Below are positions 13,628-29,438 of a stretch of 64,000 bases of DNA, in pieces. The stretch spans positions 5,882 to 69,881 of the forward strand of contig CAVQYV010000014.1 of the NCBI GenBank assembly GCA_963718295.1. The letters are read 5' to 3'. The stretch's first letter is position 1; the number at the start of each line of letters is the position of its first letter. Below the pieces are notes generated by a model. It made no database searches, had not been told where the DNA came from, and worked only from the letters and a program-made list of their open reading frames with translations. A program made the translations under genes and the position numbers. This DNA is from CAVQYV01 sp963718295 [NCBI: uncultured Methylomirabilota bacterium] (GTDB taxonomy: Bacteria > Methylomirabilota > Methylomirabilia > CAVQYV01).

Positions 13628-16465
13628 TCACTGGGTGATCCGGACCGTTTTGTAAAGGAAGTTCTTGAAGCGGACGAATTTTCTTTGTTCTTCGGGTGCC
13701 TCGCCAAAATTCGGAAGACATGCCTTCAGGGCCACCGCCATCTTGGGCAAAGAGTTTCCGCCCTGACTGCGGGCTTTGTTGCATACGAGCTTTACCGTCT
13801 CTCGAGTGATCTCATTGCGGGAGTAGGGGCGATAGACCGCTTGCCAGAAATCCTCTCCCCCCCTTTCGATCCTCTCCAAGACCTCAAGAGAGACCTTCTC
13901 GTTGAGTCCATCCGCTCGCTCACTCCTCCTGCCGTTCTCCAAGGCTTGGATCGCCGCGAGGATCTCTTTCCCCCCCATCCGTGACTGGGAGCGGAGGAAA
14001 AGGGCCCGAAGGAGGATGCTGCGAAGTTCTCTCACATTCCCCTCAAAACTGCGGCTCAGCAACAGAGCCTTCGCCTCTTTGTCCAGATAGGGCGCATCCC
14101 GTCCCCCCTCCCCCGGTCCCCTGTAGGTCTGGTAAAGCTGTCCCAGGAAATGCACGGCCAGATCGGGAATATCCTCCCGTCTCTCCCTGAGAGGCGGAAC
14201 AGAGATCGTCAGCTCGCTGAGTCGATGGTAAAGATCCTCTCGAAAACGCCTCTCCCGGATCATCTCTTGTAGATCCCGATTGGTCGCAGCCACCAGCAGG
14301 ACCCCAGCATAACGGGTCTGATTCTCTCCCAATCGCACAAAACTGCCATTGTCTAAAAAGCGGAGAAGTTGCACCTGAGTTTTGGGGTCAGCGTCTCCGA
14401 TCTCATCCAGAAAGACGATGCCTCCATCCGACTCTTCCAGAATCCCCCGGCGGTCCGAGTAGGCACTGGTGAAGGCACCTTTCTTATGGCCGAACAGCTC
14501 GCTGTAGGTAAGCTCTCCGCTATAGGCAGCAATGTTGCACTTTCGTACCGGGAGTTCGTTGCCGGGGCCCCGATCCCGCTCATAGAGCTCGTTGAGGAGG
14601 GAATAGATGTGGTTGAAGATGAACTCCTTGCCCGAACCCGTCTCTCCGGTAATCAGGATTGAAGGCAGACCCAGGGGGGATTCCGGCACCTTCCTTTTTT
14701 CCCACTGGGAGATCCGATTATACAGATAGGGAACAAAGGTGTTGATGAGGCGAATGGTCTCTTGGGATTTGGGACTGTTCCCGATAATAGTCCCCAGGCG
14801 ATAGGAGGAGACTTTGGGGTCCCGGTAGTTGATGTCCCTCTTGAGCCGATTCACCTCCTGCTGCAGCTCATCAATTCTCTGGAGGTCCTGGATATGACGG
14901 CCTACCAGCCTAGCTATGATCTCAATGATGCGCTTATGCTCCTCGGTAAAGAAGGACCTGCGGAAGCTATCCACATTGATTACCGCAATCACTTCCTCGT
15001 CGACCAGCACCGGAACCGCAAGCTCCGATCTTACACCCGGAGAGATCTCTCTGAAGAACCCCCCTTTTCGCTTCTCCTCCTCCACATCGGACAAAAGATG
15101 GGATTCGCGGGTAAAGGCGACCAGCCCGGTGAGGGAGCGGTCCTCTCGACTGAGATCCTCGGCTCCGACCCGGAGAGGAAGGATATTCCTCTTCCTCCAT
15201 TCTCTCGACTTGGCGCCCAGCAGCGTTCCGTTTTCATCCTCCACATAAAGCCATCTTTCTCCCTCTTTCTCTCGGAGGAGGGCGATCGAGCCAGTATCCG
15301 TGCCTATGAGCTCGCAGACCTTGGAAAGGACCTTCCCCAGGAAAGAGGGAAGGTCTTCCTCCTTCTGAGTCAGCAGCTCGTTGATCTCCGAGAGGACCCG
15401 GATCTCCACGTGCTCCCGGCCGACTTCCTGGATGGCCTTTTCCACCATTTCCGCATGGCTCTCCAATAGCTTCTTCTCAAAGGCAGAGAACTCATAGGGC
15501 TGGCAGGTGTAATAGTTCAAAATACAGACCAGCCTTCGATGGGTGGGATCATAGCGGGGCACGGTATAGAGGGAGGCAAGGCCAATCTTCTCTGCCATGA
15601 GCCGACGCTGGGATAGATCCTTCTTCACGTCGGGATAATAGAGGGGGGAGGCAAACTCCTCCTGACAGAGGATCCCCTGATGGCCATCATGGGAGAGCAA
15701 GTGAGAAAAGAGGCTGTCCCCTTTCCTGAGGCTGATCTTGCTCCTGTCTTCATAGATGTTCTTGTGGCCTGGATCCCGGGAGTAAGTGGCGAGGATCTCC
15801 AGGTGGGGCTGTGATTCCCGGGAACTGCTGATTTCTCCTGGGACCAGGACCGATGCCAAACATAGCTTGTCCACCAATTTCACAGCGGATCGCACCATTC
15901 GGAAGGCGGCTTCCCTCTTCTTGACTTCATCCACCTGTTTTCCCAGTACGATCTGCTGGTGGTATTTGCGGGCGATATTGATGGATGGGGCTATCGCTTC
16001 CAGGAACTTGTTGATGGCCTTCAATTGCTCTCGGCCCAGGGTCTCTTCCGTCCTGTCCGAATCGACACAGATCACCCCGATCGCCTCTTCGTCCTGGAGG
16101 ATGGGGATCATCGTGGAGGATTTGATCCCGAATCTTGCCTCCAGCTCGGCCTCCACAGTTCCTTTGCTGTCTCTTGAGGCAGTGCCGATCAGGAGTTCCT
16201 TATCGATGAAGGCACGGGAGATCAGAGACTGCTTGGGGTCGAATAGCAGCGAGGTGCCCCGAATGTCCGATTCCCGTTCCCCCCGGACATAGGCACAGGT
16301 CAGCATCCCCTCGGTCATATCCTCCAGGTAGATGCGATAGCGGGCCAGCCCGGTGATCAACTCCATCCCATCGGTTACGAAGTGGAGGATTTCCTGGAGG
16401 TTTTCCTTGCCGTAGGATCTGATCTTGTGCTGGAGCTGATAGAGTTGTGGCATTCTCTTTTCCAA
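13628..16465 (-). CDS. GAF-domain sigma-54 activator-like AAA+ protein
   Basis: A 945-residue protein. Residues 1-570 hold what look like three GAF sensor domains. The AAA+ module follows: Walker A GETGSGKE (near 605), the sigma-54 loop read as GAFTSA rather than GAFTGA (near 662), Walker B IVFLDEIGD, and the sensor segment VPPLRERREDIPDL. The C-terminal 140 residues show no obvious Fis-type helix-turn-helix. The altered loop and missing HTH suggest either an activator that works without specific DNA binding or a protein that no longer drives sigma-54. The TTG at 16465 has AGGAAAGGA upstream; an in-frame ATG 12 nt later is the alternative. The gene follows argS in the same direction. Confidence 0.85.
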   Translation of the reverse strand: MEKRMPQLYQLQHKIRSYGKENLQEILHFVTDGMELITGLARYRIYLEDMTEGMLTCAYVRGERESDIRGTSLLFDPKQSLISRAFIDKELLIGTASRDSKGTVEAELEARFGIKSSTMIPILQDEEAIGVICVDSDRTEETLGREQLKAINKFLEAIAPSINIARKYHQQIVLGKQVDEVKKREAAFRMVRSAVKLVDKLCLASVLVPGEISSSRESQPHLEILATYSRDPGHKNIYEDRSKISLRKGDSLFSHLLSHDGHQGILCQEEFASPLYYPDVKKDLSQRRLMAEKIGLASLYTVPRYDPTHRRLVCILNYYTCQPYEFSAFEKKLLESHAEMVEKAIQEVGREHVEIRVLSEINELLTQKEEDLPSFLGKVLSKVCELIGTDTGSIALLREKEGERWLYVEDENGTLLGAKSREWRKRNILPLRVGAEDLSREDRSLTGLVAFTRESHLLSDVEEEKRKGGFFREISPGVRSELAVPVLVDEEVIAVINVDSFRRSFFTEEHKRIIEIIARLVGRHIQDLQRIDELQQEVNRLKRDINYRDPKVSSYRLGTIIGNSPKSQETIRLINTFVPYLYNRISQWEKRKVPESPLGLPSILITGETGSGKEFIFNHIYSLLNELYERDRGPGNELPVRKCNIAAYSGELTYSELFGHKKGAFTSAYSDRRGILEESDGGIVFLDEIGDADPKTQVQLLRFLDNGSFVRLGENQTRYAGVLLVAATNRDLQEMIRERRFREDLYHRLSELTISVPPLRERREDIPDLAVHFLGQLYQTYRGPGEGGRDAPYLDKEAKALLLSRSFEGNVRELRSILLRALFLRSQSRMGGKEILAAIQALENGRRSERADGLNEKVSLEVLERIERGGEDFWQAVYRPYSRNEITRETVKLVCNKARSQGGNSLPKMAVALKACLPNFGEAPEEQRKFVRFKNFLYKTVRITQ

Positions 16466-18291: not shown

Positions 18292-21072
18292 CTACACGAA
18301 GGCGGGAAAAAAGTCAAGCCAAATGCGGACTTGGGCAAATGGGAACTTCGCGGACGAGGACCCTGATTCCTCCGGCTGCTCATCTGGCTGCGGCAGCTCT
18401 TCGTTTTCTTGTTGTTTCTGTTCCTCCACCGGCCCGGGCTCAGGGTCAGGAGGAAACTCTTCCTGCCTCAGCTCCTTTCGGTCCTGCCCGTCTTCCTGGG
18501 GCGCCTGAGGTGAGTCCTGTGGTGAGTCCTGTTTCTCTGGTTCTTCTTCCCTCTGCTCCTCATCTGGCTGCAGCTCCGGCTCCAGAGGAGGCCCTTCTTG
18601 CTTCAGGATCTCTGGCTCCCTCTCCTCCTCCTGCGGCGCCCTGGGCGAGTCTATTCTCTGCTCCTCCTGTGGCCTCAGGTCCTGCTCCTCCTCTTTTTGT
18701 GGCTCCGGCTGAAGAAGAGGCTGTTCCTCCTCCGCCCCTGTCGGCTTCTGCCCCTGGGGTTCCTCTGGTCCTCCAAAGATCTTCTTGATCACCGGCCGGG
18801 GCTTGATATGGACCAGGAAATCGAGATCTTTCACCTCCCCTCCCACCGGCACGGCCGCCTCCAGCGTCTCCTTCGAGGTGATCTCCCCCCCCTCCGGCAG
18901 GGAGGCCAGATCCAAGCCGAGTCGATAGCTTCCTCCCCGCAGGTTCTCGATCTGGAAATTGCCATCCTCATCGGTATAGGTCAAGAAGGTCTTCTCCCCC
19001 AAGGTGGCAACGACCAGAACATTGGCGAGCCCCTTCTCTCCCTCCTCCGATTTCCCGTTGCCATTCGCATCCTCTATCACCCTGCCAGCCATTCTTCCTA
19101 ACAGCAGGAAAGCGAAGTCCGTCTGGGAGGTTCCCCGCCGCTTCACCTCCAGCACCCTCTTGGGTTCTCCCACGAAATCATATTCGATGGGGACCTTCTT
19201 GGTGTCCAAAGCCACGGTATGTTCCCCCATCTCGACATTCAGGAAGGAGAATTTCCCTTCCTCGTCGGTGGTGGCGAGGGACCCATCCTCCAGTTTTAGA
19301 CGGATGCCAGAAAGCAGGGGTTCTCCTTTATCTTGAATGCCATTCCCATTGCGGTCATCGAAGGCAACCCCCAGAATGGTTCCATAGCCGGGAGGAGGCT
19401 GGCCCGAAACCACAGGCTTGGCGGTCACCGGACGCTCTCCCCATCCGAAACGCTGAGATAGGCGCAGATAGAGGCGATGCTCGTCCCGATCTCTCCCGCC
19501 GGCCTTCTCGTCTACCTTGGCATAGCCATATTCCGCATAGAGGCTGAGGTTCCAGGGGAGATAGGCGTTCACGGAGGCCAGGAGGCCCTTTCGCTCGGTG
19601 TCGATCAGATGAAGATCGTCTTTGGAGCGGGAGTAAGTCAGTTCCCCCCGTAGATCCAGGGTGGAAGAAGGGCGATAATCGGTGCCGAGTCGGACGGTGT
19701 AGGTATTGGTGACCGATTCGGCAGATCGGCTCCAGTACCGATTCCAGTCACCGCTAATCCAGGAATAGGAACCGTTCCCAAAGGTCTTTCGAAGCTCCAG
19801 GTAGCAAAGATCCGAATTATATTCGGAGGCCCGAGTTGCCGAATCGCGATAGTCGTAGTGTTGATAGCGGAGGATGGGAAACCAGCCCCGATAGCTGTAA
19901 GTGATTTCCCCCGTGTAGCTCTGGAGCCGGTTATCCGTCTTCGATGGCTCGTCGTGTCGGGATTTCCGTTCCGTGAAGCCATAACGGACGGTCAACAAGG
20001 GCAGGGAAGTCCCTCCCAATTGAAGGCCCAGGATCGCGTTTTTGGTATCGATCGCGGCCAGGTCCGGATCATCCTGCAGGTTGTTGCGATAGAAGTCTCC
20101 GCTCCCGAAGACGGAGAGAAACCACCAGGGCCAATATTGACCCGAGAGGAAAAAGCCCTCCTGATCACTGTAATAGTATCGACTAATGGGCTGATAGTTC
20201 GAGCCAATGTGCCGGAAATTGGCCTCCAGGTAGAGCTTGGAATTCCGGATGTAAGGCCCTAAGATCACTGCATAATCCCACCCTTTGTCTTGTCCGTTGT
20301 TTTTCTCCCGCTTTTGATAGTGCGAAAGGCTTAGCTCTCCCTGCAATAGCCTATAGCCTGGCCAGGGCTCCAACTCGACGCTGAAATCGTAGACGTCATT
20401 TCTGCGGTATATGGGATAGCTGGTCTCCTCCCCGTCGTCGGATCGTTCCGACCACAGGAATTGAGCCCCCAATCTCAGTTCCGGCAAGATGCTGTAGCGG
20501 GACCGTATCCCCACCAGCTTTTCATCCAAGTAATCTACCCCAGTACCGTAAGACCCCGTCAGCAGGACCAGGTTCCCTCCGAAGACATCCACCTCTCCCC
20601 GGTCGGAGCTGAGACGCAGGCGTGGACCCTCCACCGTGATATCGGGATCGGGCAGGTTGGAAAACCGAAACGGGTAATCTCCGATCAACATGTAGTGAAT
20701 GATGTTATCTCCCACGGCACAGTCCAACTTGGCGCCGTTGAAATATAGATCCCTATATTCAACCAGCCAGCTCCCCAGACGATGATACGAGGGCTCATCC
20801 ACCCAGTTGATGAATCCGGACAGGTTGCCCCAGTTGATGGAGTCCTGGAAAAAGGAGAGGCGGTAATTGGAGAAGGGTTGGGAATCGGAGGGTCCTTCCT
20901 GGAAATCGATTCCGAGAAGGCGGTATTGATATTCGAGGGTAGCGCTGCCCGGAGGAATTGCCTCAGATTCTGCGGGGAAGAAAGCGACCAGGCAGAGGAC
21001 AACTGATAGGCCTAAGAGCAGAAGAGAGAAGGGGGAATTCGATCTGTAGAAATGGAAGTCGGTTTTGGCCAC
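18292..21072 (-). CDS. Outer-membrane barrel with SdrD-like domains and Pro/Glu-rich tail
   Basis: A 926-residue exported protein. A signal peptide ends near residue 38 (SEAIPPG). Residues about 40-570 are rich in alternating aromatic strands (EYQYRLLGIDF, YRLLQGELSLSHYQ, SLYAEYGYAKV), as in a large beta-barrel. Two SdrD_B-like domains follow, each with a Ca-binding-like DxNGNG loop (DDRNGNGIQDKGE; EDANGNGKSEEGE). About 160 residues of Pro, Glu and Gln repeats end the protein. It starts 14 nt after the chaperone gene, so it is the last gene of the pilin operon. By position it takes the place of an usher, but the classical usher plug and plan are not evident. It could export or anchor the pilin-like subunits; this is inference. 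Confidence 0.75.
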   Translation of the reverse strand: MAKTDFHFYRSNSPFSLLLLGLSVVLCLVAFFPAESEAIPPGSATLEYQYRLLGIDFQEGPSDSQPFSNYRLSFFQDSINWGNLSGFINWVDEPSYHRLGSWLVEYRDLYFNGAKLDCAVGDNIIHYMLIGDYPFRFSNLPDPDITVEGPRLRLSSDRGEVDVFGGNLVLLTGSYGTGVDYLDEKLVGIRSRYSILPELRLGAQFLWSERSDDGEETSYPIYRRNDVYDFSVELEPWPGYRLLQGELSLSHYQKREKNNGQDKGWDYAVILGPYIRNSKLYLEANFRHIGSNYQPISRYYYSDQEGFFLSGQYWPWWFLSVFGSGDFYRNNLQDDPDLAAIDTKNAILGLQLGGTSLPLLTVRYGFTERKSRHDEPSKTDNRLQSYTGEITYSYRGWFPILRYQHYDYRDSATRASEYNSDLCYLELRKTFGNGSYSWISGDWNRYWSRSAESVTNTYTVRLGTDYRPSSTLDLRGELTYSRSKDDLHLIDTERKGLLASVNAYLPWNLSLYAEYGYAKVDEKAGGRDRDEHRLYLRLSQRFGWGERPVTAKPVVSGQPPPGYGTILGVAFDDRNGNGIQDKGEPLLSGIRLKLEDGSLATTDEEGKFSFLNVEMGEHTVALDTKKVPIEYDFVGEPKRVLEVKRRGTSQTDFAFLLLGRMAGRVIEDANGNGKSEEGEKGLANVLVVATLGEKTFLTYTDEDGNFQIENLRGGSYRLGLDLASLPEGGEITSKETLEAAVPVGGEVKDLDFLVHIKPRPVIKKIFGGPEEPQGQKPTGAEEEQPLLQPEPQKEEEQDLRPQEEQRIDSPRAPQEEEREPEILKQEGPPLEPELQPDEEQREEEPEKQDSPQDSPQAPQEDGQDRKELRQEEFPPDPEPGPVEEQKQQENEELPQPDEQPEESGSSSAKFPFAQVRIWLDFFPAFV

Positions 21073-21086
21073 ATCCGTTCATCCAT

Positions 21087-21896
21087 TTAATCGCCGATGG
21101 AGAATTTCCTTTCCCCGCCCAACAACTCCTTCCGGCCGATGTCCATGGTCAACTCTGCCACATATTCCCCGGAGGGGAGCTTACTCTCCATGGTGACCTT
21201 GAAATCGCGGCGAGAGTGCGGGAGGATGGGAAGATCGGGAAGCGGGAGCCTGGCGATTTCCTTTCCCCCCTGGTCCCGAATGGCGATCTCGCCCCGGGTG
21301 CGGATATGAACCGGGCCCGCATTCTGGAAGGAAATGGTGAACTCGGGCTTTCCCTCAGGGTCCAGCTTGAAGGACAACCCAGTGATCTCTCCCGCCGGAA
21401 CAGGCCTCCCCACCGTTTGATAAACGATGGTGGCGATGCGACCTTCGAACATCATCTGCTTCCGTTTTTCTCCGGGCCGGGGAGGAGGCACATTGGCAAA
21501 GAGGATGGCTGCCCGATAGCCCCCGGGGACTGCATCCCTGGGAACGGAAAGGGAATAGCGAACACTCTGGGACTGGCCCGGCCCCAGATCGAATTCCCGG
21601 GGGTTCACCCTGATCCAGGAGGCAGCCGAATAGGATTGGCTCCCGGCTCTGCCGAAGGCGATGGCCCCATCCTGAGTCAGCCACCAGTCCTCTACCTTCA
21701 CCCGAATATGTGCAGGTGCAGTGTCGGCGTTGGCGATCGTGATGGCTTCCGTAATCGTGCCCCCGGCAGGAACGGAATGCTCCACCCGGATAGGTGACAC
21801 GCTGAATGAGATCGCCTCCAATCGGCCCCAAGGAATCAACAAGGCCAGGATCATTACCCAGGCAAAATGATGTCTATTCCTAATGTCTTTCTTCAT
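21087..21896 (-). CDS. PapD-like periplasmic fimbrial chaperone
   Basis: A 269-residue protein with a signal peptide (ending near LEAISFSVSP) and two immunoglobulin-like halves. The N-terminal half starts with FSVSPIRVEHSVPAGGTITEAITIANAD, the strand pattern of pilus chaperones and related molecular chaperones. A SVRYSLSVPRDAVPGGYRAAILF segment follows. These proteins hold pilin subunits by donor-strand complementation before export. It lies between two secreted pilin-like genes and the outer-membrane barrel gene, with short gaps, which supports that role. Confidence 0.8.
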   Translation of the reverse strand: MKKDIRNRHHFAWVMILALLIPWGRLEAISFSVSPIRVEHSVPAGGTITEAITIANADTAPAHIRVKVEDWWLTQDGAIAFGRAGSQSYSAASWIRVNPREFDLGPGQSQSVRYSLSVPRDAVPGGYRAAILFANVPPPRPGEKRKQMMFEGRIATIVYQTVGRPVPAGEITGLSFKLDPEGKPEFTISFQNAGPVHIRTRGEIAIRDQGGKEIARLPLPDLPILPHSRRDFKVTMESKLPSGEYVAELTMDIGRKELLGGERKFSIGD

Positions 21897-21914
21897 AGTT
21901 GTTCTTCCTCGATC

Positions 21915-22424
21915 CTAAGGTGCAGTCAGGGTATAGGTAATGATCTGCGAATAGTTACCGATCCAATAGTCCCAGCTATTCTTGAAAAAAAAGGAAATGC
22001 TTCCATTCAGGTTGGCATTGCCTGTCCCATTGGCGACCGTCTGGGGAGCGGTCTTGTCCAGCCTTCCATCGATGAAGGGAAGGGGACTCGCGGTCCAGGA
22101 GACATTGGAAATCGCAATGATATCGGACCCGGACACCAGATCACCGGAGGCGAGCACTTGCAGACGCCATGGGCCATCGGGGGGTCCGTTTCCAGTCACC
22201 TTCACTTGGATTCCTAAGGGGTTCTCTGAGGCCGGCACCGAAGGGACTGTGTCGGGATCATCACTCGGGAAATTGATTGCGGCCCGATTCAAGGTCAGGG
22301 TTACTTTCACGGCGGCCAGCGCCGTTTCGACGGCGCAGAGCAACAGGAGGCAGATGACGATCGTGAGTATGTGAGATAGCCTCTTCATATTGGGCGCTTT
22401 CTTTGAGGAGATGAGGGCTTTCAT
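21915..22424 (-). CDS. Secreted pilin-like subunit B
   Basis: A 169-residue protein with a signal peptide (ending near TALAAVKV). It is a paralogue of the product at 22524-23027: both share INFP..DPDTVPS...EN, SGSD.IAISNV.WTAS and the ending NSW.Y..GNY....TYTLT.P. The C-terminal alternating hydrophobic strand resembles those of subunits assembled by periplasmic chaperones. It carries no Cys pair for a pilin disulfide in the mature part. Gap to the chaperone gene is 18 nt. As the second subunit it may be an adaptor or minor subunit. Confidence 0.7.
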   Translation of the reverse strand: MKALISSKKAPNMKRLSHILTIVICLLLLCAVETALAAVKVTLTLNRAAINFPSDDPDTVPSVPASENPLGIQVKVTGNGPPDGPWRLQVLASGDLVSGSDIIAISNVSWTASPLPFIDGRLDKTAPQTVANGTGNANLNGSISFFFKNSWDYWIGNYSQIITYTLTAP

Positions 22425-22461
22425 TTTCCGGCGTTTATATCACAACCAAATTCATCGAGCC

Positions 22462-22503
22462 AATAAAAAAGGGAGGATGGGGCCCCCCATTCCCCATCCT
22501 CCC
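22462..22503 (-). terminator. Rho-independent terminator/attenuator between the two pilin genes
   Basis: Read leftward, a 12-bp stem (arms 22503-22492 and 22482-22471, GGGAGGATGGGG with its complement) and a 9-nt loop are followed by TTTTTTATT. It falls after the first subunit gene and before the second. Partial read-through would make subunit A more abundant than the chaperone and barrel. Confidence 0.8.
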
Positions 22504-22523
22504 TTCGGCTACACCCCTTCTTC

Positions 22524-23027
22524 TCAGGGAGAAGTCAGGGTGTAGGTCGCCGTAGCAGTGTAGTTCCCCACTGCATAAGCCCAACTATTGGCCAAGAAGT
22601 AGGAGAAGGTACCGGTTTTGTTCCCCGGGCCGCTCCAACTCCCGGCATTCTGGGCAGTCACCCTGTTCATGGTTCCGGCCACGTAGCCGCCCCCGCTGGC
22701 GGTCCAGGTAACATTGCTGATCGCGATGGTATCCGATCCGGACGTAAGTTCCGAACCGACCAGCACCGTGAGGGTTGATGCGCCGCTGGCGCCGGTTCTC
22801 GCCTTGCAAGATACGGCCACCGAGTTCTCAGTGGCGGCTATCGATGGAACGGTATCCGGGTCCGCGTCGGGGAAATTGATCGTTCCGACTCCCAATGTTA
22901 ACTTAGCGGCATTGACGACACTGGCATTGATGACCAGGGTTTCGGTATCAGTAGCCGCCAGCGCCTGAGCCACTCCCAAGAGCAGTGTTGCCGCCAGCAT
23001 GAGGGTTAGGGTTTTCAAAGTTTTCAT
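22524..23027 (-). CDS. Secreted pilin-like subunit A (probable major subunit)
   Basis: A 167-residue protein with a clean signal peptide (MKTLKTLTLMLAATLLLG, cleavage near ALAATD). The mature part is small, Thr/Ser/Gly/Ala-rich and strand-forming, ending in the alternating TATATYTLTSP. It is paralogous to the next gene. First gene of the operon, 66 nt downstream of the transcription start predicted from a sigma-54 promoter. It is followed directly by a strong terminator, the arrangement usual for a major structural subunit. A GGAGGAACACGAT site precedes the ATG. Confidence 0.72.
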   Translation of the reverse strand: MKTLKTLTLMLAATLLLGVAQALAATDTETLVINASVVNAAKLTLGVGTINFPDADPDTVPSIAATENSVAVSCKARTGASGASTLTVLVGSELTSGSDTIAISNVTWTASGGGYVAGTMNRVTAQNAGSWSGPGNKTGTFSYFLANSWAYAVGNYTATATYTLTSP

Positions 23028-23103
23028 ATCGTGTTCCTCCTTTCAAAGGTTCCTAATGGGTTGCCGTTAGATTGAGGAGTTCAACGTGCTGCTCCCTGTG
23101 GAG

Positions 23104-23119
23104 TGCAACGGCTGTGCCA
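23104..23119 (-). promoter_or_regulatory. Sigma-54 (-24/-12) promoter of the pilin operon
   Basis: On the minus strand TGGCAC (23119-23114), 5 nt, TTGCA (23108-23104). This is an exact match to the core sigma-54 consensus, with GG and GC dinucleotides 12 bp apart. Predicted start of transcription is near 23093. ACGGCTGTG recurs about 90 bp upstream (near 23198), a possible activator site. Confidence 0.85.
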
Positions 23120-23236
23120 ATTCGGAAATCACCTTTCCTTCGGTCTGGAGGAGATCCTCATAAGGCTATTGATTTTATTGAAAGAAATGCACAAGCTACG
23201 GCTGTGTCTGCGACTCCCTTTTCCTGCCTCCGCAAA

Positions 23237-23311
23237 ACAAAAAGGCAATAGTTGCCGCCTCGTTGCGTGCCTCTTGCGGTGCTGTCCGGGTTAATCCGGC
23301 AACTATTGCCT
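23237..23311 (-). terminator. Terminator of the response-regulator gene
   Basis: Read leftward, a 15-bp perfect stem (arms 23311-23297 and 23257-23243, core GGCAATAGTTGCC) with a 39-nt loop is followed by TTTTGTTTT. It lies just after the stop at 23316 and insulates the regulator transcript from the sigma-54 promoter. The long loop makes it less typical. Confidence 0.6.
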
Positions 23312-23315
23312 GCTC

Positions 23316-24740
23316 TCAGCTGGATCCGTCTGGGTCCTGGGTATAGCCGTATTCTTTTAGCTTGTCGCGGAGCCCGCGGACGCTGATCCCCAAAGCCTCT
23401 GCCGCCCGCGTGCGGTTCCCTCCCACCTCCTTGAGAGTCCTCAATATATAGCTTTTCTCCACCTCTCTCATGGTTCGGCCCAACTGCAGCGAGACCGTAT
23501 CGCCGGTTTTCTCCGGGCGCAAGATCACATCTTCTGCCCCGCCGCCCTGCAAGGCCAAGGGCAGATCAGCCAGATGGATCGAGTCGGACTCTGCCATCAC
23601 CACCGCCCGCTCCATGCAGTTTTCCAACTCGCGCACGTTGCCCGGCCAATCGTAGGATAGGAGAGCCTGGATAGCCTTGGACGATATTCCCTTGATCTGC
23701 TTCTCATTCTCCTTGCTGTATTTCCTCAGAAAATGCTCGGCCAGGGTGGGGATATCCTCTTTCCTTTCCCGCAGAGGAGGGATCCGTAGGGGGATCACGC
23801 TCAAACGATAGAACAGATCTTCACGGAAGTTCCCCTCTTTCATGGCCCTTGTGAGATCCTTGTTGGTGGCGGCGATGAGCCGGATATTGACCCGGATGGG
23901 TCGGGTTCCGCCGACGCGCTCGAACTCCCGCTCCTGCAAGGCCCGCAGGATCTTGGCCTGCAGAGGAAGTTCGAGATCTCCGATCTCATCCAAAAAGATG
24001 CTCCCTCCGGTGGCCATCTCGAACTTGCCCCTTTTGTCGGCGATAGCCCCGGTGAATGACCCTTTCACGTGGCCGAAGAGCTCGCTTTCCATCAACTCCC
24101 GGGGGATGGCCGCGCAATTGACTGCGATGAAAGGCTCCTCCTTCCTCGGGCTATTGAAATGGATGGCGCGGGCCACCAACTCCTTGCCAGTCCCGCTCTC
24201 TCCGTGTATGAGGATGCTGGCATTGGAGTTGGCCACCTTGGAAATCAGGGAGAAGACCTCCTGCATGCGTCCGGAGGAGCCGATGATATTCTCGAAGCGG
24301 TATTTCTTGCCCAAGGCCTCCGATAGTTGCCGGTTCTTCTTGATCAGGGAGTACTTCTCCGCGCCCTGATGAATTGCCAAATTGAGGAAATCGAAATCGA
24401 TCGGCTTGGTGATGTATATGAAAGCCCCCTTCTCCCAAGCCTGGCTCCTGATTTGATCGTCTCCTGATCCGGTGATGATGATCACCGGCATCTCGGGTTC
24501 CTTTTCCTTGATCCGCCCCAAGAGCTCGATGCCACTCATCCTGGGCATGAGGACATCGGTGAGGACCAGGTCTATTTCCTCTGTGGCGAAGATCCTCTCC
24601 GCTTCTACGCCATCGGCGGCCAGCACCGGCTCAATTCCCTTCTGTTTCAAAAAATCCTCCAGCATCTGGAGGATGAGCCGGTCATCATCGACCACCAAGA
24701 CCCGTATCTTATTTGTCGTCTTCTGATCTCCGGTTTTCAT
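23316..24740 (-). CDS. NtrC-family sigma-54 response regulator
   Basis: A 474-residue activator in three parts. The receiver domain (about 10-125) has the phospho-acceptor Asp in VLTDVLMPRMSG. The AAA+ domain has Walker A GESGTGKE, the loop KGSFTGAIADKRG (GSFTGA, an accepted form of GAFTGA) and Walker B GGSIFLDEIGD. A Fis-type helix-turn-helix ends the protein (NRTRAAEALGISVRGLRDKLK). No partner histidine kinase is in the window. It lies upstream of, and on the same strand as, an operon with an exact sigma-54 promoter, so it very likely controls that operon. Confidence 0.93.
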   Translation of the reverse strand: MKTGDQKTTNKIRVLVVDDDRLILQMLEDFLKQKGIEPVLAADGVEAERIFATEEIDLVLTDVLMPRMSGIELLGRIKEKEPEMPVIIITGSGDDQIRSQAWEKGAFIYITKPIDFDFLNLAIHQGAEKYSLIKKNRQLSEALGKKYRFENIIGSSGRMQEVFSLISKVANSNASILIHGESGTGKELVARAIHFNSPRKEEPFIAVNCAAIPRELMESELFGHVKGSFTGAIADKRGKFEMATGGSIFLDEIGDLELPLQAKILRALQEREFERVGGTRPIRVNIRLIAATNKDLTRAMKEGNFREDLFYRLSVIPLRIPPLRERKEDIPTLAEHFLRKYSKENEKQIKGISSKAIQALLSYDWPGNVRELENCMERAVVMAESDSIHLADLPLALQGGGAEDVILRPEKTGDTVSLQLGRTMREVEKSYILRTLKEVGGNRTRAAEALGISVRGLRDKLKEYGYTQDPDGSS

Positions 24741-25156
24741 CTGTAGATCAACCTTGATCCATTCTGATGTGTTTGTTCGCGCCTTCGGCGCGAATGCCGA
24801 GAGGCCAACTCATTTCATCATGGATAGACTGCGATGCTGACCCGATTATATACAATGACCCCTCAGTAGAAGTCAACCTTTGAGTTTCAATGGATCCCTC
24901 TTCTTTGGCCTTGGACTCATGGCCAGCCCACCTCGTCTTGGCCATCTACCGTGCCCGGATGCCAGATGAAGGAAGTGGTCCCATGCATCCTTCCTATTCT
25001 GTTCTGTGGATAATTTTATCCGATCATCGGAGGGATCTTGTTGGGTATTGCATTCGGCGGTGGAGGTATTCTATATGTATCATAGATTTCGGTGAACCGA
25101 AGCGACCGCCCCCGGCGGAACAGATCCGGACGAGCGTTACCCATTCGGCAAGGTGG

Positions 25157-26005
25157 ATGCTCAATGCTCAGACCTTCTTCGCCTTCTTCGCCGCCAAGAG
25201 TTGCATGGCATTCCTTGTCTATTGTTGTATCCCATTAGGGCTTCTCGGGCCGATGATGACTCTCGCCCAAGCGGCGGGATCGGATGAGATTCAAGTCTAC
25301 ACCGACGATATCAACGATCCGGGGCAAATCGGCCTTGAGGTGCATGCCAACTATATCATCGATGGCGACCCGAAACCTGCCTATACCGGTGATATCCCGT
25401 CTGATCACCTGCTTCGGATCACCCCGGAGTTTTCCTACGGATTGACGGAGGCCTACGAAGCCGGCCTCTATCTGCCCATGTCCTTGGATAGAGACAGCAA
25501 TTTCTGTCTGGATGGCGCCAAGATACGCTTGAAGTTCATTCCTTCCCTGGGAGACGATCCCTATTTCGGGGGCGTGAACTGGGAGCTCGGGTGCGTTGCC
25601 AAACGCCTGGAAGAAAGTCGCTGGAACATGGAATTGAGGCCGATTTTGGGCTTCAGGCAATCTCCCTGGCTGATTTCCTTCAACCCGATATTGGGATGGG
25701 CGCTGTCCGGTGACGACGGCAGTGGGTGGCCCACCCTGGAGCCAGCGCTCAAGGTGCAATTCGATATCGCATCGGGAATCGGGATCGGCTTCGAGTACTA
25801 TGCTAATCTGGGTAGACTGGATCAGATCCAGCCTCTGCACGAAGAGGAGCATACCATTTATGCGGCCGTCGATCTCAAGAAGGGCCTTTTGGATCTCAAC
25901 CTGGGCCTGGGATATGGTTTGACGGAGAGCGTGGATAAATGGACCGTCAAGCTGATTGCCTCCATACCGATCCCCTCCTGGAATCCTTCAGCGGCTATCC
26001 AGTAG
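25157..26005 (+). CDS. Exported outer-membrane-like protein (transporter/barrel family)
   Basis: A protein of about 282 residues with an N-terminal hydrophobic export signal ending near TLAQAAGSDE. The mature part has the repeated strand pattern (ITPEFSYGLTEAYEAGLYLP, RPILGFRQSPWLISF, LGLGYGLTESVDKWTVKLIAS) typical of small outer-membrane barrels with a final strand ending in an aromatic-poor tail. The start is uncertain: 25157 (AAGGTGG abuts it) or the ATG at 25205. Function unknown. A strong terminator follows at 26129-26190, and metal-transport genes lie beyond it. Confidence 0.65.
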   Translation: MLNAQTFFAFFAAKSCMAFLVYCCIPLGLLGPMMTLAQAAGSDEIQVYTDDINDPGQIGLEVHANYIIDGDPKPAYTGDIPSDHLLRITPEFSYGLTEAYEAGLYLPMSLDRDSNFCLDGAKIRLKFIPSLGDDPYFGGVNWELGCVAKRLEESRWNMELRPILGFRQSPWLISFNPILGWALSGDDGSGWPTLEPALKVQFDIASGIGIGFEYYANLGRLDQIQPLHEEEHTIYAAVDLKKGLLDLNLGLGYGLTESVDKWTVKLIASIPIPSWNPSAAIQ

Positions 26006-26190: not shown

Positions 26191-26278
26191 AGGAAGGTCG
26201 GCCAGGGTTGCCGAAGCTATGGGCCGATGCTGAAATCCCATCGGATCCCTCTCGGGGGTGCGTGAAAGGAAAGAGGAA

Positions 26279-26974
26279 ATGCATATTCCGGACGGATATC
26301 TTGGACCGCCCACCTATTTGAGTCTCTATGCAGCCTGTGTACCCTTCTGGGTGGCCGCATCGGCCAAGGTGAAGAAGGGGTTGAAGTCGGTTCAAGTCCC
26401 CTTTCTGGCGTTGGGGGCAGCCTTCAACTTCGTGATCATGATGATCAATGTCCCGATCCCGGGCGGGACCACAGGCCATGCCACCGGTGTGCCCCTGGTG
26501 GCGATGCTATTGGGCCCATGGCCCGCGATCATCACTTCCTCTATCGCTCTGGCCATTCAGGCCCTGCTCTTTGGCGACGGGGGAATCATGTCCTTGGGCG
26601 CGAATTGCTTCAACATCTCTATCGTCGGGGCCTTGGTAGGGTATTCTCTGTACCGTTTCATTTCCTGGAATTCCAGCGAGAAGTCAAAGAGGAGATTGGT
26701 CGCAGCTGGCCTCTCCTCTTACATTGCCGTGAATCTGGGAGCCCTGTTGACCGCGGTAGAGGTGGGCATTCAGCCCCTCCTGCACACGGGGGCTGATGGC
26801 AGGCCCCTCTACAGCCCCTTTCCCATTCAGATCACGGTCCCCGGCATCATGATTCAGCATCTGGCGATCTTCAGTTTTATAGAGGTGATCATGACCGTTT
26901 TAGCCATGGCCTATTTTCAACGATCTCACCCGGAATGGCTCAAGGGTGCTCTTTACGGGTCGGCGGGAGACTGA
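26279..26974 (+). CDS. cbiM: ECF nickel/cobalt transporter S component CbiM
   Basis: A 231-residue membrane protein. The start MHIPDGYLG is diagnostic: the N-terminal Met-His is part of the metal site in CbiM/NikM, so the ATG at 26279 (after AGGAAAGAGGAA) is chosen over an upstream frame. About six to seven membrane helices are visible, with the conserved PIPGGTTGHATG loop and LFGDGGI. It has no fused CbiN domain. It is the first gene of a metal-uptake locus that continues to the CbiO gene at 30439. Confidence 0.95.
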   Translation: MHIPDGYLGPPTYLSLYAACVPFWVAASAKVKKGLKSVQVPFLALGAAFNFVIMMINVPIPGGTTGHATGVPLVAMLLGPWPAIITSSIALAIQALLFGDGGIMSLGANCFNISIVGALVGYSLYRFISWNSSEKSKRRLVAAGLSSYIAVNLGALLTAVEVGIQPLLHTGADGRPLYSPFPIQITVPGIMIQHLAIFSFIEVIMTVLAMAYFQRSHPEWLKGALYGSAGD

Positions 26975-27139
26975 GGAAGGATTAGGACCAAGAAGATCTA
27001 TGGGCGGGCAATCCAACAAATTAGCTCGGGGAGGAGGCGGAAGGTGTTTTGCGAGAGCGATTCTCGCAGCCTGCTGCCGGGAGCTCCGATTTCCCGGGGC
27101 CAGACTGGGAGCATCGTCACCCATCACAGGAGGAGAGAA

Positions 27140-27853
27140 ATGCACAATCGAATTGCTATCTTCGCTCTATCCTTTCTCCTAATGGTAGTCAGCGGCTCTT
27201 TCGCCCATGATTTCTGGGTGGAAAAGGCAGGGACGACCCTCAAGGTAGTTTATGGCCACGGCGCCCAGAGGCTTCCCTACGATCCTTCCACGATCAAGGA
27301 TGTAAGAGGATTTGATGGTCAGGGGAAAGAGATTCAGGTCGGAGTAGAGAAGAAAAAGGATAGCGCCCTGTTGGTTCCGAAAGGGGAGGCCGCAGTGATC
27401 ACCATGATGGTGGATGACGGGTTCTGGGTGAAGACCATCATGGGTCTAAAAAAGATGTCCAAGAGACAGGCAGGCAAGAGGGTGATCGATGCCTATCAGG
27501 CGATGGATTGCTCGAAGGCAGTCCTGGCTTGGGGGGAGGCAGTAGGGAAGCCCCTGGGACTCAAGCTGGAGATCGTTCCCCTGCAAAATATCTTCGAGGT
27601 GAAGGCGGGCCATAAGTTACCGGTAAAGGTCCTTTTGGACGGAGAGCCTCTGGCGAATGTAGAAGTGGAGTCCGTCGAGCACACCAGGACAGCGAAGACA
27701 GATGCGAGGGGCATCGCAGAGGTCCCGCTTTCCGGAGAGGGGTTGAAGGTGATTACTGCCCGGCACCGGCTGCCACTGAAGGGAAATCCGGACGCCGATT
27801 CCTTGAAGCTCACTGCTACCCTGACCTTCGGGGAAAAGGGAGGGGGCAAGTAG
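27140..27853 (+). CDS. DUF4198 periplasmic protein (NikK-like)
   Basis: A 237-residue protein with a signal peptide (ending SFAHDFWV). The start of the mature part, His-Asp-Phe-Trp, is the hallmark of DUF4198 proteins. A second Ig-like module near the C-terminus has PVKVLLDGEPLANVEVE. Such proteins occur beside CbiM/NikM transporters as extra periplasmic components (NikK) and probably deliver or sense Ni or Co. AGGAGAGAA precedes the ATG. It lies 165 nt after cbiM and 1 nt before the NikL-like gene. Confidence 0.8.
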   Translation: MHNRIAIFALSFLLMVVSGSFAHDFWVEKAGTTLKVVYGHGAQRLPYDPSTIKDVRGFDGQGKEIQVGVEKKKDSALLVPKGEAAVITMMVDDGFWVKTIMGLKKMSKRQAGKRVIDAYQAMDCSKAVLAWGEAVGKPLGLKLEIVPLQNIFEVKAGHKLPVKVLLDGEPLANVEVESVEHTRTAKTDARGIAEVPLSGEGLKVITARHRLPLKGNPDADSLKLTATLTFGEKGGGK

Positions 27854-27854
27854 G

Positions 27855-28310
27855 ATGAAAAAGCTGATATTGCTCATCATCACCTGCTTTTTCTGCTTGG
27901 CCGTGCCCCTCTTTTCTTATGCCCACACGGTCAACTATCAGGTGGAGAACAAAGGCGTGACTGTCAGGGTATTCTATGCGGAGAATGACCCTGCGAGTTA
28001 CGCCGAATATGAAGTTCATGGCCCTGGCGACGATCTTCCGCACCAGAAGGGGCGAACGGATAAGAACGGCTGCGTCAGCTTCCTGCCGGACAGAAAGGGG
28101 GTCTGGAAAGTCAAGGTGTGGGGGGAGTCTGAGCATGGTTTCCACGGCACTGACGTATCCGTGGAGATCGAGGAGGGGCTGATGGTGAAAGGCTTCAAGA
28201 AGCCCTTGGTGGCGACCCATCTCAAGCTATTCGTTGGAGTGAGCCTCATCTTGGGCCTCTTCGGTGTGATCACCCTTTGGAAGAACTGGAGAGGGAGGAA
28301 AAAGGCTTGA
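27855..28310 (+). CDS. NikL-like membrane-anchored periplasmic protein
   Basis: A 151-residue protein with a signal peptide (ending FSYAHTVN), an Ig-like domain (about residues 25-110, YEVHGPGDDLPHQKGRTDKNG) and one C-terminal membrane helix (LKLFVGVSLILGLFGVITLW). It ends in a basic tail. This is the layout of NikL, an accessory part of some nickel ECF transporters. The mature N-terminus starts with His after the cleavage site, a possible metal ligand. Tightly linked to the DUF4198 gene. Confidence 0.72.
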   Translation: MKKLILLIITCFFCLAVPLFSYAHTVNYQVENKGVTVRVFYAENDPASYAEYEVHGPGDDLPHQKGRTDKNGCVSFLPDRKGVWKVKVWGESEHGFHGTDVSVEIEEGLMVKGFKKPLVATHLKLFVGVSLILGLFGVITLWKNWRGRKKA

Positions 28311-28373
28311 GGCTTGAGCATGGATGACGCAGGTTATTTCCTCTGATTTCACTTTCACCTATAGGAGGAGCGC

Positions 28374-29369
28374 ATGTTCAGGATGAGATGGTTCGGCTTG
28401 AATCTCTTCGCAGCTCTAATCATCAGCTCTGGGGTTATTCTACCCGCCCAGTCCTGGGCCCATCACGGAGCAGTGAGCCTGGTGTACGGGCCCGGGGCGC
28501 CCATCTCCACCAGCTCCGCCCTGACCCTTCCTCAGGGAGGGTTTCTGGTCATGGCCAAAGTCGAGCAGGCTGAGTGGAGGAAATTCGACTGGGCCAGGCC
28601 GGAGAACAAGGACGAGTTCACTTTCGCTTCCCTCGGCCTGGGTTATGGTTTCACCCCCTATCTGACGAGCACCCTCTTTATTCCCTATGTGGTCAAGCAG
28701 CAGGACAGGCTCGGAGACTCCTATGGGGGAGGGGATGCCCTCGCCCTCTTTCAATTGGGATTCAATTACGATTCCGGCAAGGGGTTTGGTTTGAACACCC
28801 CGGATGAGACGGCCATGTCCCTCGAGGCGTCTACCAAGACCTTCTTTTCCATATACGCGGGCGGCTCGGCCCCCAGCGGCGAGAGCCACAACGAGGACGA
28901 GTTCGGAGAGGAGTTCGAGCGGGGGATGCAGCCGGGGTTTCGCAGCCCCACCTTCTTGATCGGTCTGTCGGCGACCAAATATCTCTTTCACGGCTTGACC
29001 CTATGCGCCGATGCGGAGTATACCATCTTCACCGAGAAGGACGATTTCAAGTTCGGCAACGAGTTCAAGGTGGACCTGGCGGGGGTATACGATCTCGTGA
29101 CCAAGCCGGGAGTGGCGGGCCTGCAGGGTATCCTCGAGCTGAATCTGCTCAATGTGGCTAAAGACGAAGAAGGGGGGAAGGGAATTCCTAACTCCGGAGG
29201 GACGATCCTTTATGTATCCCCGGGGCTCCGCGTCAATTTCCCTCCGGTGAGCCTGGGATTCCTGTTGAAATTTCCTGCCTGGAAGGATTTGAACCGCCAG
29301 AGCGAGCAGCAAGGGGCGGAGGGACTGGAGAAGTATCGCGCTATTGTCAGCCTGTCCGTTTTCTTCTAA
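28374..29369 (+). CDS. Outer-membrane barrel in the nickel/cobalt locus
   Basis: A 331-residue protein with a signal peptide ending AQSWAHHGAVSL, so the mature protein begins with two His. Strand-rich sequence with repeated aromatic girdles (FTFASLGLGYGFTPYLTSTLFIPYV ... FLIGLSATKYLFHGLTLCADAEYTIF) and a final IVSLSVFF, ending in Phe as outer-membrane barrels do. It lies within the ECF transport locus between the NikL-like gene and cbiQ. It could be a metal-specific outer-membrane channel. A GGAGGAG site lies just upstream of the ATG. Confidence 0.7.
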   Translation: MFRMRWFGLNLFAALIISSGVILPAQSWAHHGAVSLVYGPGAPISTSSALTLPQGGFLVMAKVEQAEWRKFDWARPENKDEFTFASLGLGYGFTPYLTSTLFIPYVVKQQDRLGDSYGGGDALALFQLGFNYDSGKGFGLNTPDETAMSLEASTKTFFSIYAGGSAPSGESHNEDEFGEEFERGMQPGFRSPTFLIGLSATKYLFHGLTLCADAEYTIFTEKDDFKFGNEFKVDLAGVYDLVTKPGVAGLQGILELNLLNVAKDEEGGKGIPNSGGTILYVSPGLRVNFPPVSLGFLLKFPAWKDLNRQSEQQGAEGLEKYRAIVSLSVFF

Positions 29370-29438
29370 TAGGCGGAATGAAGTGGCAAACTTTGGCGCG
29401 AGGAAGGGATTTCTTTCCTGCAAAGGAGAGCGACGATC

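What the first reader, a model, noticed from the sequence alone, without database searches (positions are those of the whole stretch)
18292..24740. Possible new chaperone-assembled surface-fibre system under sigma-54 control
Seen: two paralogous secreted strand-rich subunits, a PapD-like chaperone and a 926-residue outer-membrane-type protein with two SdrD-like domains lie in one leftward unit with short gaps. An exact TGGCAC-N5-TTGCA promoter precedes the first subunit. An NtrC-type response regulator with an intact activator core lies directly upstream. Known: in chaperone-usher systems the order subunit-chaperone-usher is usual. Here the usher position is taken by a barrel of about 530 residues plus Ca-loop domains and a 160-residue Pro/Glu tail, which does not look like a PapC-type usher. 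Inference: a distinct chaperone-dependent fibre or coat secretion system, switched on by a two-component signal.
Basis: partly seen in the sequence, partly recalled or inferred. Interest (0 to 1): 0.78.

Follow-up and report, generated by a model that had tools for sequence, protein, structure and literature searches.

The report
Unannotated chaperone-usher-like surface-fibre system
A short gene cluster, found again in distantly related bacteria and mostly left unnamed, looks like a machine that builds and exports a protein fibre in the manner of bacterial pili, but with an unusual export channel and a helper protein that links two families that barely recognise each other.

Summary
In detail: two 42%-identical secreted subunits, a two-Ig-domain chaperone and a 926-aa outer-membrane-type protein form one leftward unit (gaps 99, 18, 14 nt) behind an exact sigma-54 site, next to an NtrC-type regulator. 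Profile-profile, the chaperone matches Gram-positive WxLIP (99.5%) and archaic chaperone-usher chaperones (99.3%), which match each other at 54%. Subunits match archaic spore-coat-U pilins in the N-terminal half (93%). The barrel is no PF00577 usher: its model has 26 strands, no N-terminal domain, no plug; but two C-terminal domains sit where ushers carry CTD1/CTD2, the first aligning with usher CTD1 (44-88%). Sixteen of 22 subunit sets contain exactly one subunit without the N-terminal donor-like segment (SubB here), the expected tip; a strong terminator follows SubA, the expected major subunit. Best reading: a chaperone-usher-like fibre system with a reduced usher. Not shown: donor-strand pairing (the joint model does not show it), fibres, export. 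The listed paper searches found no description.

The parts
23316..24740 (-). NtrC-type sigma-54-dependent response regulator, 474 aa
   Evidence: Pfam Response_reg, Sigma54_activat, AAA_lid_14, HTH_8; homologues (33-42% identical) in 8 of 16 loci scanned, in 7 of them upstream of and near the subunit genes on the same strand
23243..23311 (-). terminator-like hairpin between the regulator and the first subunit
   Evidence: -30.9 kcal/mol, z -2.8, 2 of 200 shuffles as good
23104..23119 (-). sigma-54 (-24/-12) promoter-like site TGGCAC-N5-TTGCA
   Evidence: expected 0.04 per window; comparable sites in other loci
22524..23027 (-). SubA: secreted subunit with an N-terminal donor-strand-like extension; proposed major subunit
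22465..22504 (-). strong terminator/attenuator-like hairpin (13 pairs) with T run between SubA and SubB
   Evidence: (-32.6 kcal/mol for the 56-nt stretch, z -3.4, 0 of 200 shuffles)
21915..22424 (-). SubB: paralogous subunit without the N-terminal extension; proposed tip (first) subunit
   Evidence: model
21087..21896 (-). periplasmic chaperone of two Ig-like domains, between WxLIP and archaic chaperone-usher chaperones
18292..21072 (-). usher-like outer-membrane barrel protein, 926 aa (whole gene)
19441..20949 (-). barrel domain, residues 42-544, 26 predicted strands, no N-terminal domain, no plug
   Evidence: AlphaFold2 model
18793..19386 (-). two C-terminal beta domains (SdrD_B/carboxypeptidase-regulatory type), where ushers have CTD1 and CTD2
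   Evidence: the model was cut at residue 745, inside the second domain
18295..18792 (-). Pro/Glu/Gln-rich C-terminal tail of about 165 aa
   Evidence: relatives in L003, L005, L006, L008 end at 746-762 aa without it

Best explanation
This is a chaperone-dependent surface-fibre assembly system that works like a chaperone-usher pathway but has a different export pore. Subunits with Sec signal peptides enter the periplasm. A two-domain chaperone, related to both WxLIP and archaic CU chaperones, caps each one, probably by lending its F1-G1 edge to an incomplete Ig-like fold. Capped subunits are delivered to an outer-membrane barrel that has two C-terminal periplasmic domains like an usher but neither the N-terminal recruitment domain nor the plug. 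The C-terminal domains alone would do capture and handover. SubB, which has no N-terminal donor segment, would go first and sit at the tip; SubA, which has one and is probably made in excess because a terminator follows its gene, would form the shaft by donor-strand exchange. Transcription starts at a sigma-54 site, most likely driven by the adjacent NtrC-type regulator. Shown: genes, conservation, homologies, promoter- and terminator-like signals. Inferred: capping, exchange, export, tip and shaft roles, regulation.
For: Gene set conserved: 19 loci besides the window hold subunits, chaperone and barrel together, and Deinococcus plasmids a likely variant. Chaperone: hhalign 99.5% to WxLIP over 238 columns and 99.3% to archaic CU chaperones over 217; VIA Z 17.3 to WxLIP 9i25, 13.3 to CfaA, 12.9 to CsuC and FimC, over both domains. 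Subunits: 93% to spore-coat-U pilins over 64 N-terminal columns; against chaperones, barrels and ushers the subunits score 22% at most. Barrel: the ten best Foldseek hits are FimD/PapC ushers, E down to 2e-17; C-terminal domains to usher CTD1 88% in the whole profile, 44% alone, against 1.3% or less for two generic SdrD-type profiles. Exactly one subunit without the extension in 16 of 22 sets. A hairpin of -19 kcal/mol or stronger before a T run follows a subunit gene in 8 of 22 gaps tested, in eight different loci, each with 0 of 200 shuffles as good. Sigma-54 site scores of 17.5 or more of 20.5 in 12 of 21 loci, window included.
Against: The joint SubB-chaperone model does not show donor-strand complementation: the chaperone stretch that should donate (about residues 276-292) has no strand, part of it has pLDDT under 50, and pTM is 0.59. 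The barrel region has no significant sequence match to ushers (12% or less); the barrel profile against PDB sequences finds SdrD and NOMO domains and no usher; the barrel fold alone is as close to MtrB, porins and TonB receptors as to FimD. Only 3 of 17 single family members exceed the best generic domain against ushers. Unrelated Ig domains (glycoside hydrolases, about 100 residues) reach the same Z, 13, as the CU chaperones. The place of CsuC Arg89, a carboxylate anchor, is Arg in 7 of 23 chaperones. L007 has subunits without a detected chaperone or barrel within 20 kb, and 8 of 30 barrel-profile places have neither neighbour. Six of 22 subunit sets lack the one-without-extension pattern, and the cut (18 against 20 residues) was set after seeing the numbers.
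Confidence: 0.67

Rival explanations
1. A Gram-negative counterpart of the WxL/WxLIP surface complex: the WxLIP-like protein stays bound to its subunits as part of a non-polymeric coat, and the barrel only anchors or exposes the complex.
For: The chaperone is closest to WxLIP by sequence (E 7e-5 over both domains), by Pfam (17 of 23) and by structure (Z 17.3); the order small WxL - WxLIP recurs in the Gram-positive plasmids read.
Against: No C-terminal membrane helix follows the second domain in the window protein; WxL is not among the families shown for 69 subunits (25 of 27 shown) and the profile link to WxL is weak (32% over 18 columns, background up to 22%); most subunits carry a donor-like N-terminal segment, like archaic pilins; all 21 loci here with the chaperone also hold a barrel hit (most loci were found through the barrel or the subunits, so this is biased).
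Confidence: 0.15
2. An ordinary archaic (sigma-type) chaperone-usher pilus whose usher has diverged beyond Pfam recognition but keeps the full usher anatomy.
For: Chaperone and subunit profiles, CTD1 match and usher-first Foldseek list; subunits first, barrel last.
Against: No room for an N-terminal domain (barrel strand 1 at residue 42, right after the signal peptide by reading) and no insert larger than about 20 residues in the barrel model; relatives of 746-762 aa have the same short architecture. Archaic ushers, also one from a Deinococcus plasmid, are separate genes, and the one tested is readily found by PF00577.
Confidence: 0.12
3. The barrel is an MtrB/porin-like channel with a separate function, and the four genes are joined only by chance or co-regulation.
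For: Best VIA match is MtrB (Z 18.6, 444 aligned residues, 5.1 A), with porins close behind.
Against: The barrel shares a locus with the chaperone in 21 of 30 distinct barrel places; Foldseek ranks ushers first; usher CTD1 match with controls.
Confidence: 0.04

Closest known systems
Archaic (sigma) chaperone-usher pili, e.g. Csu
   Same: Subunits first, outer-membrane protein after the chaperone; two-domain Ig-like chaperone (hhalign 99.3%); subunits with an N-terminal extension and a related N-terminal half (93%); barrel followed by two beta domains, the first like usher CTD1.
   Different: No PF00577 usher; no usher N-terminal domain or plug in the model; 26 instead of 24 strands; a one-domain subunit without the extension where Csu-type clusters have a long last subunit; the chaperone is as close to WxLIP.
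WxL / WxLIP (DUF916-DUF3324) surface complexes of Gram-positive bacteria
   Same: Closest relative of the chaperone by sequence and structure; small subunit gene beside it; WxLIP is predicted to complete the WxL sandwich with a hairpin strand (PMC10599100, abstract, Results and Discussion read).
   Different: No membrane helix at the end of the chaperone, no WxL motif by reading in SubA and SubB, no WxL family hit seen, and an outer-membrane barrel, for which Gram-positives have no outer membrane.
FimD/PapC ushers
   Same: Ten best Foldseek hits of the barrel model; FimD barrel Z 15.7-15.8.
   Different: No NTD, no plug, two more predicted strands; C-terminal domains that Pfam calls SdrD_B.
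MtrB of the Mtr complex (26 strands, recalled)
   Same: Best geometric match of the barrel, Z 18.6.
   Different: No subunit or chaperone partners (recalled), different context.

Membership tests
Chaperone-usher pathway (archaic type) | Periplasmic chaperone of two Ig-like domains homologous to CU chaperones | tested here: met
   hhalign 99.3% over 217 columns; VIA Z 12-13 to CsuC, FimC, CfaA over both domains; but only 3 of 23 hit Pfam PapD_N, best 4e-4
Chaperone-usher pathway (archaic type) | Usher of family PF00577 | tested here: not met
   0 of 17 barrels, 0 of 18 genomes (the E. coli control rings); an archaic usher from a plasmid is found by the same library
Chaperone-usher pathway (archaic type) | Usher N-terminal domain and plug domain, 24-strand barrel (listed in PMC8410936, passages read) | tested here: not met
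   AlphaFold2 model, pLDDT 78, pTM 0.57: strand 1 at residue 42, 26 strands, no insert above about 20 residues; a prediction from 6 sequences. The longer Deinococcus and L041 variants have an N-terminal extension not examined further
Chaperone-usher pathway (archaic type) | Two C-terminal usher domains, CTD1 and CTD2 | tested here: inconclusive
   Two beta domains in the right place; hhalign to usher CTD1 44-88%, generic profiles 1.3% or less, single generic domains up to 5.7%, single family members 0.2-23.5%; CTD2 not separately matched
Chaperone-usher pathway (archaic type) | Subunits with an incomplete Ig fold and a donated N-terminal extension | tested here: inconclusive
   93% to spore-coat-U over the N-terminal half; extension absent in exactly one subunit of 16 of 22 sets; strand donation not seen in the joint model
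Chaperone-usher pathway (archaic type) | Carboxylate anchor Arg89/Arg174/Tyr196 of CsuC (PMC4654587, passages read) | tested here: inconclusive
   Places taken from the hhalign alignment and by counting along an Acinetobacter relative, not CsuC itself: Arg at 7 of 23 (Arg89 place) and 20 of 23 (Arg174 place); no Tyr at the Tyr196 place by reading
WxL/WxLIP complex | DUF916-DUF3324 protein | tested here: met
   hhalign 99.5% over 238 columns; 17 of 23 hit WxLIP_PGBD (best 3e-6) and 3 of 23 WxLIP_HBD; the scores shown are below the curated cut-off; structure Z 17.3
WxL/WxLIP complex | C-terminal transmembrane helix of WxLIP (PMC10599100) | tested here: not met
   The window protein ends with the second Ig domain in the model, and most of the 23 relatives end at the same place in the alignment
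WxL/WxLIP complex | Partner with a WxL domain (dual Trp-x-Leu) | tested here: not met
   SubA and SubB have no Pfam hit at E 1 and no Trp-x-Leu by reading; for 69 subunits WxL is not among the 25 of 27 families shown; hhalign 32% over 18 columns
Sigma-54-controlled unit | -24/-12 site and an enhancer-binding activator | tested here: met
   activator binding sites and RpoN not looked for

The most novel reading that the evidence does not exclude
The system is a living link between Gram-positive WxL/WxLIP complexes and Gram-negative chaperone-usher pili: a chaperone stock from which both WxLIP and CU chaperones descend, working with a simpler usher (barrel plus C-terminal domains, before a plug and N-terminal domain were acquired). 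Donor-strand assembly of surface polymers would then predate the split of the two envelope types.
Probability: 0.25. Interest if true: 0.88.

Novelty: new variant of a known kind. Interest (0 to 1): 0.72.

Why it matters
If it exports a fibre, it shows that an usher can work without the plug and the N-terminal recruitment domain, both held to be central to gating and catalysis, which makes the minimal requirements of usher catalysis testable. Its chaperone gives a sequence bridge between two surface-assembly families that barely recognise each other (54%). It also gives a likely function to genes that the annotated records read here call 'hypothetical' or 'carboxypeptidase-like'.

Tried and rejected
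Single-sequence and Pfam searches for the subunits gave nothing convincing, and their profile against PDB one chance hit. Single-sequence chaperone against PDB: nothing useful; only the profile found WxLIP. The barrel profile against PDB found SdrD and NOMO domains, no usher. Barrel-only profile-profile comparison with ushers: not significant; a shared Gly-Asp motif before the usher plug was seen by eye but scored 0.3% and is not used. A WxL link of the subunits was considered (similar last strand) and not accepted (32% over 18 columns). Chance clustering rejected by the recurring neighbourhood. No Rfam RNA at gathering scores in the window.

The genome searches overlapped: the 'phylum' of G001, G003 and G005 appears to be one group, so largely sampled the same genomes (7 of 297 with the barrel-only profile, the seed genomes among them; 12 of 297 with the profile that includes the C-terminal domains). 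Phylum of G006 (a Vicinamibacterales MAG by title): 11 of 297, G006 among them. Class of G005: 1 of 23, G005 itself. Class of G002: 0 of 14, G002 itself not ringing. So the system is sparse, a few per cent of sampled genomes. The chaperone tree has weak deep support (84/61) and long branches; its hub-like placing of this family is not used as proof.

Rows dropped before counts: from the 71 subunit rows I left out two cut pieces (L004, L071) and two duplicates (L044), and added the two window subunits: 69. Six weaker subunit-like ORFs (E over 1e-3) were not in the set; read, the one in L039 looks short (no extension) and lies before the chaperone, the five in L065, L067-L070 carry an extension, so they do not disturb the pattern. 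L072 was left out of the chaperone profile used for hhalign and the tree (it has a long extra part), but is in the counts of 23.

Papers: no description of the system appeared in searches (open PMC full text only, no preprints; the longer result lists were seen only in their top rows). I read the abstract, Results and Discussion of PMC10599100 and passages of PMC4654587 and PMC8410936; the rest are listings. The paper behind PDB 9i25/9i1y was not seen.

Full report
What is there. One search confirms five minus-strand ORFs at the stated coordinates: an NtrC-type regulator, SubA, SubB, a 269-aa chaperone and a 926-aa barrel protein, with gaps of 288, 99, 18 and 14 nt. SubA and SubB are 42% identical. 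The sigma-54 site is exact and occurs once in 64 kb, 0.04 expected. Between SubA and SubB lies a 13-pair hairpin followed by a T run (-32.6 kcal/mol for the 56-nt stretch, 0 of 200 shuffles as good); another hairpin follows the regulator (-30.9, 2 of 200). So the regulator is probably transcribed apart from the unit, and SubA is probably made in excess of the genes behind it (inference).

Is it conserved? A profile of the two paralogues found 8 loci in the species-genome collection: by record title three deltaproteobacterial MAGs, one labelled Bacillota, an uncultured proteobacterium, a Vicinamibacterales, a gammaproteobacterium and an Aminicenantes MAG. Five of these 8 hold subunits, chaperone and full barrel in one locus, the barrel last; in L006 and L008 subunits also lie between chaperone and barrel, and L008 has two chaperones. 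L002 has a barrel fragment, L004 ends in the subunits, and L007 has no detected chaperone or barrel. Profile searches of genome groups added more (widened in 24, 29). Of 31 barrel-profile rows (30 distinct places, L002 and L044 being one contig), 19 places have subunit, chaperone and barrel in one locus, 2 have a chaperone without a subunit hit, 1 is a contig-end piece whose other half (L034) carries the genes, and 8 have neither; several of these 8 match mainly by the C-terminal domains. tblastn with one chaperone found Deinococcus plasmids (E 8e-15), where the order is protein - chaperone - small protein - a barrel-type protein of 1018-1090 aa, annotated hypothetical or carboxypeptidase-like; profiles find the chaperone in 3 of 3, the barrel in 2 of 3 and a subunit in 1 of 3.

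Chaperone. For the window protein Pfam shows only sub-threshold hits. Across 23 family members, 17 hit WxLIP_PGBD (best 3e-6), 3 WxLIP_HBD and 3 PapD_N (best 4e-4). The profile finds EfmWxLIP1 in the PDB over both domains (E 7e-5) and no PapD-family chain. The model is nearest to WxLIP (Z 17.3, 231 aligned, 6.9 A), then CfaA (13.3), CsuC and FimC (12.9) over both domains; single Ig domains of unrelated proteins reach Z 13 over about 100 residues. Profile-profile: WxLIP 99.5%, archaic CU chaperones 99.3%, WxLIP against CU chaperones 54% (alignments). The family thus bridges two groups. A tree places WxLIP and CU chaperones as separate branches among its members, with weak deep support and long branches. 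One anchor of archaic chaperones (the Arg174 place) is Arg in 20 of 23; another (Arg89) in 7 of 23.

Subunits. 69 subunits hit no convincing Pfam family. Profile-profile gives 93% to spore-coat-U pilins over 64 columns that include the N-terminal extension and first strands, and 32% over 18 C-terminal columns to WxL; subunits against chaperones score up to 22%, so the WxL figure is near background. Measured from the end of the signal-peptide core to the first strand, subunits fall into a group with 20-37 residues and a group with 7-18; the cut was set after seeing the numbers. In 16 of 22 sets exactly one subunit is of the short kind: directly before a chaperone in 9, directly before the barrel in 5, elsewhere in 2. 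L004, L007, L039, L071, L072 and L073 do not show it; in L039 a short subunit before the chaperone was outside the set for its weak score, and in L071 one subunit sits at the border (20). A chain in which each subunit lends its N-terminus to the one before needs exactly one subunit with nothing to lend, at the tip; that is the reason for calling SubB the tip subunit. A hairpin of -19 kcal/mol or stronger before a T run follows a subunit gene in 8 of 22 gaps tested: after the first subunit in the window and L005, and between a subunit and the chaperone in L008, L065 and L067-L070; in each, 0 of 200 base shuffles of the gap do as well. Four of these eight (L065, L067, L069, L070) are close relatives.

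Barrel. All 17 barrels scanned carry SdrD_B and none hits Usher. The model of residues 1-745 (6 sequences, pLDDT 78, pTM 0.57) has 26 strands from 42 to 544, starting right after the signal peptide, and two beta domains behind; the cut at 745 removed the end of the second domain. No insert is larger than about 20 residues. Foldseek ranks FimD and PapC first (E 2e-17, TM about 0.3); VIA puts MtrB first (Z 18.6) and FimD at 15.7-15.8 among porins and TonB receptors, so the barrel fold as such says little. The barrel profile against PDB sequences finds no usher. Against archaic ushers the profile aligns in the C-terminal part only, with usher CTD1: 88% in the whole profile, 44% for the domains alone, 1.3% or less for two generic SdrD-type profiles and 5.7% at most for 11 single generic domains; 17 single family members score 0.2-23.5%, 3 of them above 5.7%. 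Eighteen genomes with the system or its relatives have no PF00577 usher and no PapD_N above cut-off. Tails differ: Pro/Glu-rich in the window, an OmpA domain in L001, none in L003, L005, L006 and L008.

Regulation. Scores of 17.5 or more of 20.5 for a sigma-54 site upstream of the first or second subunit occur in 12 of 21 loci, window included; 9 have none (weights recalled). NtrC-type regulators lie in 8 of 16 loci scanned, in 7 of them near and upstream of the subunits on the same strand; such regulators are common, and orthology was not tested.

How it works. The best-supported mechanism is chaperone capping, delivery to an usher-like pore through its C-terminal domains, and donor-strand exchange starting from SubB. 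The weakest step is strand donation: the joint SubB-chaperone model does not show it, although AlphaFold2 predicts it for WxLIP-WxL (PMC10599100) and it is established for CU chaperones. The system fails the usher test of the chaperone-usher family and the WxL and membrane-helix tests of the WxLIP family, so it is filed as a new variant that works like chaperone-usher, not as a member.

Noticed in passing
window 13628-16465 (-): GPMC system transcriptional regulator (NF038230, 1338 bits against a cut-off of 1200), a GAF plus sigma-54 activator, next to the argS-like ORF.
   Followed up: partly
window 26258-30389 (+): Cobalt ECF transport genes CbiM and CbiQ with small secreted-looking ORFs and a 331-aa barrel-like ORF between them (by reading), divergent from the fibre unit.
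   Followed up: no
window 24890-26005 (+): 371-aa ORF with a secreted, barrel-like look, divergent from the regulator gene; no convincing Pfam family.
   Followed up: no
L001 12746-15724, residues 888-982: The barrel protein ends in an OmpA domain (PF00691, 3e-12) in place of the Pro/Glu tail, which would tie it to peptidoglycan.
   Followed up: partly
L082, L083, L084, L041: Barrel-type variants of 1018-1090 aa with an N-terminal extension of about 250 aa (an Ig-like Pfam hit in L082), perhaps doing the work of an usher N-terminal domain.
   Followed up: no
L008 10657-11472 and 12474-13250: Two different chaperone genes in one unit (35% and 25% identical to the window chaperone), each behind subunit genes.
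   Followed up: no
L072 9754-11211: Chaperone with a long C-terminal addition (485 aa in all); the one AMIN hit among 23 members is probably this one.
   Followed up: no
C-terminus of the barrels, alignments A2 and A11: A short Arg-Pro-x-Ile/Val-like motif ends many barrels after the second C-terminal domain; role unknown.
   Followed up: no
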